A stretch of 62,531 bases of DNA from the IMG/VR virus record IMGVR_UViG_3300035698_024459, positions 1 to 62,531 of that record. One strand, 5' to 3'. Made by a program: the position numbers and the translations under genes. The notes beneath the pieces are model-generated. The model searched no databases and was not told where the DNA came from. It saw only the letters and a program-made list of their open reading frames with translations. This DNA comes from a virus. Shown one piece after another: positions 26,615 to 29,308 of the stretch (the stretch's first letter is position 1; every line of letters begins with the position of its first letter).

Positions 26615-28227
26615 ATGACAAATACTTTAACACCAACTCAAATTCAAACTGATCTTTCGGTTGGAGTGAAGGATTGGCTCGTAAGAGCCGATGTTTCCAA
26701 AACCGGTCGTGCAGTAGGCAGCTTCCTTGATGTCGCCACGACAGCAACCGGGTTGGCAACGCATTATAATTCTCGCCAAGAACAACGGGAAATGTTGGAA
26801 ATGATCCACAACGAGATCTTCAGCATAGACCGTGGTTTGTATGCCCTTCTGAATTGCCTTGAGGGCGTTAATGATATCAGTATTCAGACGGCGATTCAGG
26901 CGTTGCTTGATAACCCTCGTGTAATAAATCAGAGTTTCCTTCTGAATTTCGAGCAAGAAGGAATGGCTCTCGCTTACCTGATCGGCAAGCTACCTCCTCA
27001 GCGAATGCTGAAGATGTATAAGTCGTTTATTCAAAACAGAGTCAACAACACTCGTTCCAGAAAGCTGATTTTGAGAACGCTCTTGCATCAGCCGGCGAGA
27101 AAGCTGGAACACTGGGCGGTTACATATCGTAGTAAGATGAGAGCAGCACTACGCCATGCTATCGGAGTTCGTAGATCCAGTATTCTTACCTCGATTTTGG
27201 CGAAGGATACGATCAGCGGAAAAGAAACAAATATTGTCTACAACTTCATAGGAAAATATATCGGTGAAGTCCACGACGACGAAACAGAAATTTACAAAAT
27301 TCTCGAAATCGTTGGCTTCATCTTCGGCATAGAAATAAATCTAACGCTGCCAAAACTGAAAGCGTTCACGGAAGTCAAGGGTGGAAACTGGCAAGCCGGT
27401 TCTAAACTTCCAGAAGAAACTCTTGAAGGTCTTCGTGGAACTTACCACAAGAATAGAGAGCGGAAAGAAGTGCTCGAACTTACTAAGCACATGATGACGA
27501 AGGGTAAGAAAATGACCCTTCAGAGAAACTCTCAAGAAAAGGGAGTAGAAATCAAGTTTAATCCGTATCAATACGATGCCGTCAAGCTCTATGTTTACGC
27601 ATATGAGCAAGGAATTACCGACGAAATCGTTGCTGCCCTCGCCCAAAAGGCAAAGAAAGCTGCGGAATCGATGACGGTTACTTTCGATAAGATCGGAATC
27701 GTACTTGATAACTCGGCATCTATGTTCGGTCACGGTAGCCAGAAGAATAGACCAATGGCCGTTGCTCTTTCTATTCGTGACATGCTGAAGGCAGCTGTTC
27801 CGAACTGCAAAATCGTTATGACCAGCTCGCAGAGGGAAGAAACGCTTCTCGTCTGCCAAAGCCAAAGGGCGACACTTCGCTCGCAGGGGCTCTTGTCAAA
27901 GTCCTCAGAGAAGATGTTGAAGCAGTCTTCGTATTAACAGATGGTTACGAAAATGCACCAGCTGGAAGGTTCGCTGAAGTTATGAAGGTCGCTCGTGAAA
28001 AGCTGAAACTTGAAACTCCTGTCTATCAGGTTTCTCCGGTATCGGCAGCAGAAGCTTCGGCAGTCAAAACTCTGGCTCCAGGTCTTGCACCAGCAATGCC
28101 TATCTCTAGCCCAAATAAATTGGGAACCGCTTTCGTCAAAATGGTTCTCGATCAAGATCCAGAGAGAGGACTTCGGTCTCTCATTTCTCTTGGAATGAAG
28201 CAACTAACTTTTGACGGGAGGGAATAA
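26615..28227 (+). CDS. rsr: Ro60/TROVE-like RNA-binding protein with vWA domain, interrupted by a frameshift
   Basis: The combined frame gives about 537 residues, the usual length of bacterial Ro60 orthologues (Rsr). Residues 1-350 are consecutive helical pairs, as expected of a TROVE/HEAT ring; a Lys-rich segment and YQYDAVKLYVYAYEQG precede the second domain. That domain is von Willebrand A: IGIVLDNSASM supplies the metal site (D365, S367, S369), GDTSLAGAL the Thr, and FVLTDGYEN the last Asp. Reading switches frame near 27851-27855: the first frame ends at 27937, but the conserved GDTSLAGAL and LTDG motifs are in the other frame. Inserting one base restores the protein, and no slippery heptamer is seen, so an assembly indel or recent mutation is likely. 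G+C content is much higher than in neighbouring genes. TROVE assignment is from architecture and the adjacent Y-RNA-like genes. Confidence 0.65.
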
Positions 28228-28229
28228 TT

Positions 28230-29258
28230 ATGAATATCAAAGAAGTTCTTCGTGGAACAAAAGCGGGACGAATGCAGAGCGTTGGTGTTATGAGCGTGAT
28301 CCCTCTTATTCTCGATATGGAGGAAGATACTCGATTTGATGCACCAGTATCTCTGTGGGTTAACAACAGAACGTATGGTGAAATTGAATTGGAGAATAAA
28401 GAACCAAAAGCAACAATCGCCCCTGTCGGTGCTACATATATCACGAAACAAAGTGCTCAGGATCATGCGGTTATGGGAGCTGTTTTCGTCAAAGGTAAGA
28501 AGAAAGTTTCAGTAACTGATGCTGCATGTGTCCAGTCAAGTCAGGGTGGATACATCCGTCCAGAACAAACCGATATGCTAATTCTACCATGGGCCATTCG
28601 TGAATCGGCAATTGGTAAAGTCGGCAAGAAAGAATACGGTAAGCTCTGGGGAGATATCGGGAAATTCAATCGTCTAGCTAACTGTGCATCAAATGGGGAT
28701 CACCTGGAATACTTCCTCTCGAAGTATAATACCGTGATGGACCAGTTTGTTGCAGAATTCGAAATCGTTCCAAATCAGGTTGGAGCAATTATCCTGATCG
28801 ATGGAAAGGTTCATGGAATCGAGAGAGCTCCAAACCAGTCGTTCTGGCGTGGAATCTGGAAACCTCTGATTCGTATGTGCTACGGTTCCCAGGCAATCAT
28901 CGTTGGATTGAAGAAAAAAGAAATTAAACCAACTATGACGCCTATCAAAACTCGTGGTGTGAATTCTCTTGCCGATCTCGCTGAGGCTCTTGATGTTGCT
29001 GAGAAGAAAGATAGTGACAATGCAGCCGATATCGTTCGTTCATTGCTTGAAGATCAATTCGAGACAAAGAATGAAAAGAAACATAGTATCGATGGAGAAG
29101 ATGGAAAAGATACGATTATGCAGCGAACGGTCGAAAACGAACAATTTGTCGGTCAAACATTCACCGATGGACCACAGGTTTGCTACGCTTCGGTCATAAC
29201 GAAAACCGGATGGATGAAACACGCCGGTTGGAGAGGTGCAAAGGCTTTCAGCATCTAA
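28230..29258 (+). CDS. Ro60-operon partner, possibly ARPP-1-like
   Basis: A 342-residue protein starting two bases after the Ro60-like stop and ending at a strong terminator, so it is the last gene of that operon. The N-terminal 120 residues (VSVIPLILDM, PVSLWVNNRTYGEIELENKE, APVGATYITKQSAQDHAV, then KKVSVTDAACVQSSQGGYI) resemble the ARPP-1 domain as I remember it. The C-terminal half has helices and an acidic linker (residues 255-300). No nuclease or ligase motif is apparent. It shares the G+C-rich codon use of the Ro60-like gene, implying shared history or strong expression. The ARPP-1 call is tentative. Confidence 0.55.
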   Translation: MNIKEVLRGTKAGRMQSVGVMSVIPLILDMEEDTRFDAPVSLWVNNRTYGEIELENKEPKATIAPVGATYITKQSAQDHAVMGAVFVKGKKKVSVTDAACVQSSQGGYIRPEQTDMLILPWAIRESAIGKVGKKEYGKLWGDIGKFNRLANCASNGDHLEYFLSKYNTVMDQFVAEFEIVPNQVGAIILIDGKVHGIERAPNQSFWRGIWKPLIRMCYGSQAIIVGLKKKEIKPTMTPIKTRGVNSLADLAEALDVAEKKDSDNAADIVRSLLEDQFETKNEKKHSIDGEDGKDTIMQRTVENEQFVGQTFTDGPQVCYASVITKTGWMKHAGWRGAKAFSI

Positions 29259-29282
29259 GCCATTGCTAAAAGTAAAAAGAAA

Positions 29283-29308
29283 GGGGCTGAGAAATCAGCC
29301 CCTTTTTT
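29283..29308 (+). terminator. Rho-independent terminator of the Ro60-like operon
   Basis: GGGGCTGA (29283-29290), GAAA tetraloop, TCAGCCCC (29295-29302) and six T residues. A textbook intrinsic terminator, 25 bases after the last gene. Confidence 0.95.

What the first reader, a model, noticed from the sequence alone, without database searches (positions are those of the whole stretch)
26615..29308. Phage Ro60-like RNP operon with a candidate ARPP-1-like partner
A helical-repeat plus vWA protein of Rsr length directly follows the Y-RNA-like array, followed after two bases by a 342-residue protein and a strong terminator. Ro60 is known to work with exonucleases in RNA quality control; a phage copy could protect or degrade RNA during infection. 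The helical domain is too divergent for me to call TROVE from motifs alone.
Basis: partly seen in the sequence, partly recalled or inferred. Interest (0 to 1): 0.75.

Follow-up and report, generated by a model that had tools for sequence, protein, structure and literature searches.

The report
Phage Ro60 machine with tRNA-bearing RNAs
A bacterial virus carries its own version of the RNA-handling ring protein Ro60, a little-known partner protein, and small RNAs that each hold a tRNA-like body, one of them a complete tRNA written in circularly rearranged order.

Summary
The finding is real and larger than described. Window 26615-28227 encodes a protein whose AlphaFold model matches Ro60/TROVE: the ten best solved entries are all Ro60 (Z 9.7-11.9; next 6.7), although none of 26 family members hits Pfam TROVE by sequence. 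In this copy the vWA half is split by a frame change near 27830-27860; 24 of 25 relatives are intact. The next gene is ARPP-1 (PF20208, E 3.5e-22); the pair is conserved in 54 of 57 further viral loci. A 97-residue ORF separates it from a three-unit Y-RNA array (25707-26206) behind a perfect sigma-70 promoter. All units share one Ro60-type stem. Two carry a tRNA-like body in normal order; the third a full tRNA in circularly permuted order. The stem recurs upstream of relatives (20 of 26 loci; held-out 40 of 57; far above shuffles). Fourteen of 14 permuted modules, put back in normal order, are called as tRNAs. The contig end holds an RtcB ligase start. Phage Ro60 and tRNA-mimicking Y RNAs are known; the divergent Ro60/ARPP-1 pair with whole and permuted tRNA cargo is a new variant. 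Function (tRNA decoy or RNA quality control) is inferred.

The parts
25581..25609 (+). sigma-70-type promoter, TTGACA-17-TATAAT, about 100 bases upstream of the Y-RNA array
   Evidence: 12 of 12 consensus match, best of 8 found in the region; promoter-like sites overall are no more than chance (8 vs 8.9), so only the perfect score is of note
25707..25825 (+). Y-RNA-like unit 1: Ro60-type stem carrying a normal-order tRNA-like body (anticodon position ACT, acceptor stem degenerate, 3 of 7 pairs)
   Evidence: unit scan; Rfam tRNA 35.3 bits at 25738-25792; fold z -4.22; parse
25856..25981 (+). Y-RNA-like unit 2: same stem, normal-order tRNA-like body (anticodon position CAA with a short variable loop, acceptor 4 of 7 pairs)
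   Evidence: unit scan; Rfam tRNA 50.5 bits at 25882-25945; fold z -3.48
26064..26206 (+). Y-RNA-like unit 3: same stem carrying a complete circularly permuted tRNA (anticodon arm, T arm, acceptor 3' strand, 9-nt loop, acceptor 5' strand, D arm)
   Evidence: seen by eye, not by the automatic scan; Rfam YrlA 34.9 bits, E 2e-5, below the gathering score of 69; fold z -4.03; acceptor 7 of 7 pairs, anticodon arm 5 pairs; called as a 77-nt tRNA-Asp(atc) only after reordering
26245..26258 (+). terminator-like hairpin after the array
   Evidence: the longer hairpin folds at z -1.39 only
26298..26591 (+). 97-aa ORF of unknown function between array and Ro60-like gene
26615..27937 (+). Ro60-like protein, part 1: TROVE-type helical ring and first half of the vWA domain (MIDAS D365-S367-S369)
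27844..28227 (+). Ro60-like protein, part 2 in the next frame: second half of the vWA domain (GDTS, TDGYEN); frame change between about 27830 and 27860
28230..29258 (+). ARPP-1 protein, 342 aa, intact
   Evidence: PF20208 E 3.5e-22, 79.5 bits against a cut-off of 27; AF2 pLDDT 90.6
29280..29308 (+). intrinsic terminator-like hairpin (GGGGCTGA/TCAGCCCC) with T run
   Evidence: sequence read; listed for the minus strand
62245..62531 (+). start of an RtcB RNA ligase gene, cut by the contig end (probable functional companion, 33 kb away)
   Evidence: PF01139 E 4.7e-15 at 62338-62526; translation

Best explanation
This is a phage-encoded Ro60-type ribonucleoprotein operon. Shown by sequence and structure prediction: a divergent Ro60 (TROVE-type ring plus vWA), an ARPP-1 gene coupled to it, and upstream small RNAs that share one Ro60-type stem and hold tRNA-like bodies, two in normal order and one circularly permuted. 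Inferred: the RNAs are transcribed from the 25581 promoter; the Ro60 ring grips the shared stem; the tRNA body is the business end, presented to tRNA-binding enzymes. The likeliest use is as tRNA mimics or bait: they compete for host tRNA-cutting nucleases, or tether an RNA-processing enzyme to Ro60, so that tRNAs survive infection, with RtcB resealing what is cut. ARPP-1 is the dedicated protein partner of this branch, in the place that PNPase holds in the known Deinococcus RNP; its activity is unknown. The Ro60-like gene in this particular record is split, by a recent lesion or a sequence error.
For: Structure match to Ro60 only. ARPP-1 HMM. The pair is adjacent in 26 of 26 loci of the first set (those loci were found through one or other of the two genes) and in 54 of 57 non-duplicate further loci. 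The vWA metal-site residues D, S, S are invariant in 26 proteins and the later T and D nearly so. Shared stem upstream: 35 units in 20 of 26 loci against 4 on the reverse strand, 4 downstream of ARPP-1, and a mean of 3.25 (maximum 8) in 20 dinucleotide-shuffled sets. With the same unaltered scan, held-out: 72 units in 40 of 57 loci, 5 on the reverse strand, 6.8 in shuffles. Mimicry: normal-order modules have decoding-odd anticodons in 14 of 27 against 28 of 259 conventional tRNAs (p 1.4e-6; uniform random expectation 44%), so they are unlikely to decode, yet T at loop position 33 is kept in 28 of 41 modules of all kinds. RtcB in 10 of 26 records, the window included. Literature seen as passages: RNA ligases and TROVE in jumbo phages as an RNA-repair platform (PMC7824862); YrlA proposed as competitive inhibitor of an anticodon nuclease (PMC7790460).
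Against: No Pfam TROVE hit in any of 26 proteins, and hhalign against a canonical Ro60 gives probability 3.6. The Ro60-like gene is broken in this record. RNA binding, transcription and any interaction are untested. 15 of 21 IMG/VR records and the huge-phage record LR756500.1 show no RtcB (the records may be fragments). Seven Myxococcota loci that hold the Ro60-like/ARPP pair have no convincing Y-type unit upstream: the two weak matches look like chance, so the pair can exist without these RNAs. Some conventional island tRNAs also have short variable arms with Leu anticodons, which weakens the 'cannot decode' argument. For permuted modules the odd-anticodon test is inconclusive (4 of 14, p 0.067).
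Confidence: 0.62

Rival explanations
1. RNA decay machine: as in D. radiodurans, the tRNA-like domain tethers a 3' exonuclease (host PNPase) to the Ro60 ring, and the phage uses it to degrade structured host RNA; ARPP-1 is an accessory.
For: Known RYPER architecture, reported in passages of PMC8394870 and PMC7790460; permuted unit 3 has the T-acceptor-D order of the Rfam YrlA model.
Against: Whole anticodon arms, not among the arms that PMC8394870 lists for YrlA, are kept in most tRNA-bearing modules, which tethering would not need; a dedicated non-PNPase partner (ARPP-1) is conserved.
Confidence: 0.25
2. The array is a decayed tRNA cluster and the two genes are unrelated neighbours.
For: Normal-order acceptor stems in the window are degenerate (3 and 4 of 7 pairs); ARAGORN calls no tRNA in the window.
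Against: Each module is bracketed by the same two-part stem, found upstream in 20 of 26 loci and 40 of 57 held-out loci; hairpins with the stem and no tRNA body are common (58 of 118 distinct units); adjacency of the genes is conserved.
Confidence: 0.05
3. The protein is a generic HEAT-repeat plus vWA protein (for example a MoxR-type co-chaperone), not a Ro60.
For: No sequence match to Pfam TROVE; jumbo phages do carry MoxR-vWA pairs (PMC7824862 passage).
Against: Top ten solved structures are all Ro60, aligned across ring and vWA; Y-type RNAs upstream.
Confidence: 0.07
4. The window copy is a dead pseudogene because of the frame change.
For: Frame change in the vWA domain; another record (L001) has an in-frame TAG in the same domain.
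Against: The second half has no stops and still aligns at 38.9% to an intact relative, ARPP-1 is intact, and 24 of 25 relatives are intact. A very recent lesion or an assembly error fits as well.
Confidence: 0.2

Closest known systems
Ro60 / Rsr (TROVE), e.g. D. radiodurans Rsr 2nvo, Xenopus Ro 1yvp, Thermus phage phiLo Ro60 9l5y
   Same: Ring of helical repeats followed by a vWA domain; Y-type RNAs encoded next to it; known in phages already (phiLo structure; TROVE in a small subset of jumbo phages, PMC7824862; Listeria phage CKA15_055 Rsr-like with candidate Y RNAs, PMC12282133)
   Different: No sequence-level match to Pfam TROVE; identity 11-13% in structure alignment; fixed ARPP-1 partner gene
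YrlA bacterial Y RNA (Rfam RF02553)
   Same: Stem plus tRNA-like T-acceptor-D block with the acceptor closed by a loop
   Different: Below gathering score (34.9 of 69; best of all records 53.9); carries a full anticodon arm; sister units carry normal-order tRNA bodies. In controls RF02553 also rings weakly in 7 of 14 known genomes, so weak scores alone mean little
rsr-yrlBA-rtcBA RNA-repair operon of Salmonella (PMC7790460, passages)
   Same: Ro60, tRNA-mimicking Y RNA and RtcB in one genome
   Different: Here RtcB is about 33 kb away, RtcA/RtcR were not looked for, and ARPP-1 is present
ARPP-1 (PF20208)
   Same: HMM match far above cut-off in window and L001
   Different: Function undescribed in what I could read; the AF2 model matches no solved or viral structure well (best Z 4.2)
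Circularly permuted tRNA genes of algae and archaea (PMC3978253, passages)
   Same: 3' half before 5' half, halves joined through a loop at the acceptor end, some with encoded CCA
   Different: Here embedded in a Ro60-type stem, in phages and bacteria, break at the D/anticodon-arm or anticodon/T-arm border; maturation unknown
TROVE genes in archaeal tRNA gene clusters (PMC6333295, passage: 20 of 29 clusters)
   Same: Ro60-type gene inside tRNA arrays, many tRNAs called pseudogenes
   Different: Archaea; no Y RNA or ARPP-1 mentioned in the passage seen

Membership tests
TROVE / Ro60 | Sequence match to the Pfam TROVE model PF05731 | tested here: not met
   0 of 26 members at E 1; none in the window record. 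I therefore call it Ro60-like, not a PF05731 member
TROVE / Ro60 | TROVE ring fold followed by vWA domain | tested here: met
   ten Ro60 entries rank first, Z 9.7-11.9, ring and vWA aligned
TROVE / Ro60 | MIDAS metal site in the vWA domain (D-S-S, T, D) | tested here: met
   D365, S367, S369 invariant and T420 and the later D over 90% in 26 proteins; in the window copy the T and D lie in the shifted frame
TROVE / Ro60 | Binds Y RNA | not testable with these tools
   only predicted RNAs upstream
ARPP-1 (PF20208) | Pfam score above gathering cut-off | tested here: met
   79.5 bits against 27
YrlA (RF02553) | Score above Rfam gathering threshold | tested here: not met
   34.9 against 69; 0 of 27 records over it
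YrlA (RF02553) | Stem plus T arm, loop-closed acceptor, D arm | tested here: met
   window unit 3
Circularly permuted tRNA | All four arms present, 3' half encoded before 5' half | tested here: met
   14 of 14 selected modules called as tRNA after reordering, 2 of 14 gave an ARAGORN call as encoded, 0 of 280 mononucleotide shuffles. The modules had been selected by an arm parser
Circularly permuted tRNA | Matures into a tRNA that decodes | not testable with these tools
   anticodon test inconclusive, 4 of 14 odd against 28 of 259, p 0.067
Double-ring decay machine with PNPase (RYPER) | tRNA-like domain tethers PNPase | not testable with these tools
   no binding data

The most novel reading that the evidence does not exclude
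The permuted modules are precursors, not only mimics. The Ro60 ring holds the stem and presents two ends; the tRNA body is cut out and its ends sealed (RtcB), and the acceptor loop, which encodes NCCA in 6 of 15 permuted units, is opened by RNase P and a 3' nuclease. This would make functional tRNAs from the first circularly permuted tRNA genes seen in bacteria and phages, with Ro60 as an assembly jig and YrlA as a descendant that lost its anticodon arm.
Probability: 0.1. Interest if true: 0.95.

Novelty: new variant of a known kind. Interest (0 to 1): 0.74.

Why it matters
Why bacterial Y RNAs mimic tRNA is an open question. This family offers a series from plain stem, to stem plus normal tRNA body, to stem plus complete permuted tRNA, to the YrlA-like form without an anticodon arm. 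That suggests where the YrlA tRNA mimic came from and makes its target testable. It also gives ARPP-1 a context, as fixed partner of a divergent Ro60, and links Ro60 RNPs to the tRNA islands of some phages and bacteria, where tRNA-targeting defence may be fought over.

Tried and rejected
Pfam, NCBIfam, PADLOC and PHROGs on the proteins: no TROVE hit; PHROG 850 'RNA-binding protein' only weakly (E 0.0017; 7 of 26 members at E up to 1). Profile search of PDB sequences with the 3- and 26-protein alignments: nothing for Ro60. ARPP-1 fold against PDB and BFVD: no convincing match; a missing match does not show a new fold. Programmed frameshift at the frame change: rejected, because 24 of 25 relatives are intact. 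The first unit finder was useless (42 plus-strand hits in the window against 58 in a shuffle) and was replaced by the stricter one. That motif was drawn by eye, so counts on the 26 loci are in-sample; the held-out loci are the fair test. The automatic scan finds two of the window's three units; the third was added by eye.

Rows dropped or changed: one L010 unit (score 10.5) and the automatic L015 unit were left out and units seen by eye were added; one search collapsed units with identical inner sequence, 12 of 69 loci were dropped as duplicates, and one of the 57 (L117) lies on the contig of L022, already in the first set, and has no unit (so 40 of 56 without it); some automatic units lie in coding sequence and look like chance; L082 was reclassed by eye as permuted type B and L033 5746 (no anticodon arm) was left out; one spurious L102 unit was left out and the anticodons were typed by hand. 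The printed labels 'A3bits', 'ARPP1' and 'E' are mislabelled (they are E-value, E-value and bits). ARAGORN gives a hit in normal order for two permuted units (L020, L035); I read these as permuted.

Papers asked for and not held: Burroughs & Aravind 2016, Chen 2014, Sim 2020. So 'I found no report of whole or permuted tRNAs on Y RNAs' rests on searches of open-licence papers only; the key Y RNA papers may contain it.

Full report
What is there. The window is a whole 62,531-base virus record. ORF 26615-27937 (440 aa) ends inside a vWA domain; the rest of that domain runs on in the next frame to 28227. Two bases later comes an intact 342-aa ORF, then a terminator-like hairpin. Upstream, behind a perfect sigma-70 promoter, lie three units at 25707-25825, 25856-25981 and 26064-26206, then a 97-aa ORF.

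The Ro60-like protein. Sequence searches fail: no Pfam TROVE hit in any of 26 family members. With those 26 as alignment, AlphaFold gives mean pLDDT 84.9, mostly above 90 in the helical part. Among solved structures all ten best entries by VIA-align are Ro60/TROVE, Z 9.7-11.9, 326-343 residues aligned over ring and vWA; the next is Z 6.7 over 91 residues. Foldseek alone puts Ro60 entries at ranks 1-3 with E-values of only 0.07-0.31. One of them is a phage Ro60 (Thermus phage phiLo, released 2025), so phage Ro60 as such is known. The MIDAS residues are conserved. 24 of 25 relatives have one open frame; the window and L001 do not.

The partner. The second gene is ARPP-1, E 3.5e-22. In the first 26 loci the two genes are always neighbours, although those loci were found through one or other of the two. 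Of the 57 non-duplicate loci of the later scans, 54 have ARPP-1 next to the Ro60-like gene. In Myxococcota, 14 of 282 genomes match the Ro60-like profile at E up to 0.001, five of them only weakly; all eight loci that I fetched also give an ARPP-1-type match beside it (E 5e-119 for one, 6e-4 to 2e-8 for seven). The ARPP-1 model is confident (pLDDT 90.6) and matches nothing known well.

The RNAs. The units share a two-part stem: outer stem, then G-R-ACT, an inner stem and TTNCAG (TTACCG in the window) on the 5' side, with a short linker on the 3' side. An automatic scan finds 35 units in 20 of 26 upstream regions; 4 on the reverse strand, 4 in equal stretches downstream of ARPP-1, mean 3.25 in dinucleotide shuffles. 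The unaltered scan on 57 held-out loci finds 72 units in 40 loci, 5 on the reverse strand, 6.8 in shuffles. Among 118 distinct units (51 in the first set, 67 held-out): 58 short hairpins without a tRNA body, 28 normal-order tRNA bodies, 9 permuted as anticodon-T-acceptor-D, 4 permuted as T-acceptor-D-anticodon, 2 T-acceptor-D without an anticodon arm, 17 unclassed. In 6 of 15 permuted units the acceptor strand is followed by an encoded NCCA. Put back into normal order, 14 of 14 chosen permuted modules are called by ARAGORN as 71-77-nt tRNAs, 0 of 280 shuffles are, and as encoded only 2 of 14 give any call. The window's third unit is one of them.

Mimic or tRNA? Normal-order bodies have anticodons that would not decode sensibly in 14 of 27, against 28 of 259 conventional tRNAs in the same loci (p 1.4e-6), near the 44% expected of random anticodons; permuted ones 4 of 14, inconclusive. 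Loci are related, so the p-values are optimistic. T at loop position 33 is kept in 28 of 41. I read the normal-order units as mimics and leave the permuted ones open.

Context. Some cassettes lie in tRNA islands: 35 tRNA calls around L009, 48 gene calls in Minicystis rosea (L035, one of them a tmRNA), 20 in L036, 37 in L037, 25 in L062; some of these calls are the Y-type units themselves. Many others have 0-2, and the window has none. Minicystis has a second, canonical Ro60 in the same island (PF05731 and PF25045; E 2.4e-124 to D. radiodurans Rsr). RtcB occurs in 10 of 26 records, the window included, cut by its end. The window's major head protein is nearest to that of Bacillus phage G (51.8%) and, more distantly, to 196 mycobacteriophages.

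Known and new. Seen in passages: TROVE in some jumbo phages; a Listeria phage Rsr with candidate Y RNAs; YrlA mimicking D, T and acceptor arms and tethering PNPase; YrlA as possible nuclease inhibitor; TROVE genes in 20 of 29 archaeal tRNA clusters; permuted tRNA genes in algae and archaea. Not found in searches: complete or permuted tRNAs on Ro60-type stems, or a Ro60/ARPP-1 pair. The original Y RNA papers could not be read, so this is not proof of absence.

Mechanism. Shown: gene and RNA anatomy and its conservation. Inferred: Ro60 binds the stem, the tRNA body is presented as bait or tether, ARPP-1 acts with it, RtcB repairs. I give the overall reading 0.62, most of the doubt lying in function.

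Noticed in passing
window 24989-25017 and 25581-25609: Two near-perfect sigma-70 promoters (11 and 12 of 12), each preceded by a similar AAAACGGC..TTTTCCG block; the first lies upstream of a small ORF (25164-25526) with a weak symplekin-type helical-repeat hit.
   Followed up: partly
L035 / L039 (Minicystis rosea, around 8,255,887-8,269,083): A tRNA island with about 48 RNA gene calls holding both a canonical Ro60 and the divergent Ro60-like/ARPP-1 pair.
   Followed up: partly
L001 5804-5806: In-frame TAG in the vWA domain of the Ro60-like gene of another phage, the C-terminus continuing in frame: recoding, lesion or error.
   Followed up: no
L023 (146.8-kb viral contig): By eye, the cassette, an HIERVR..YGSDEYK-type gene and the capsid gene follow one another as in the window; probably a syntenic relative with an intact Ro60-like gene.
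   Followed up: no
window 44428-48177: Portal protein match covers residues 36-398 only, of 1249 aa; a long insert reads like an intein with an endonuclease.
   Followed up: no
window 59130-60053: Sigma factor (PHROG 351) whose C-terminus matches the end of a transposase (PHROG 506, residues 234-294): apparent fusion or zinc-ribbon look-alike.
   Followed up: no
L037 1497-2271: Four tRNA-Leu calls with short variable arms in a planctomycete tRNA island.
   Followed up: no
L087-L137 upstream regions: A large second subfamily of viral contigs with paired short Y-type hairpins (AGAAGAACTGGTGGTTTTTACAG...CCAACGAATTTCTTCT).
   Followed up: partly
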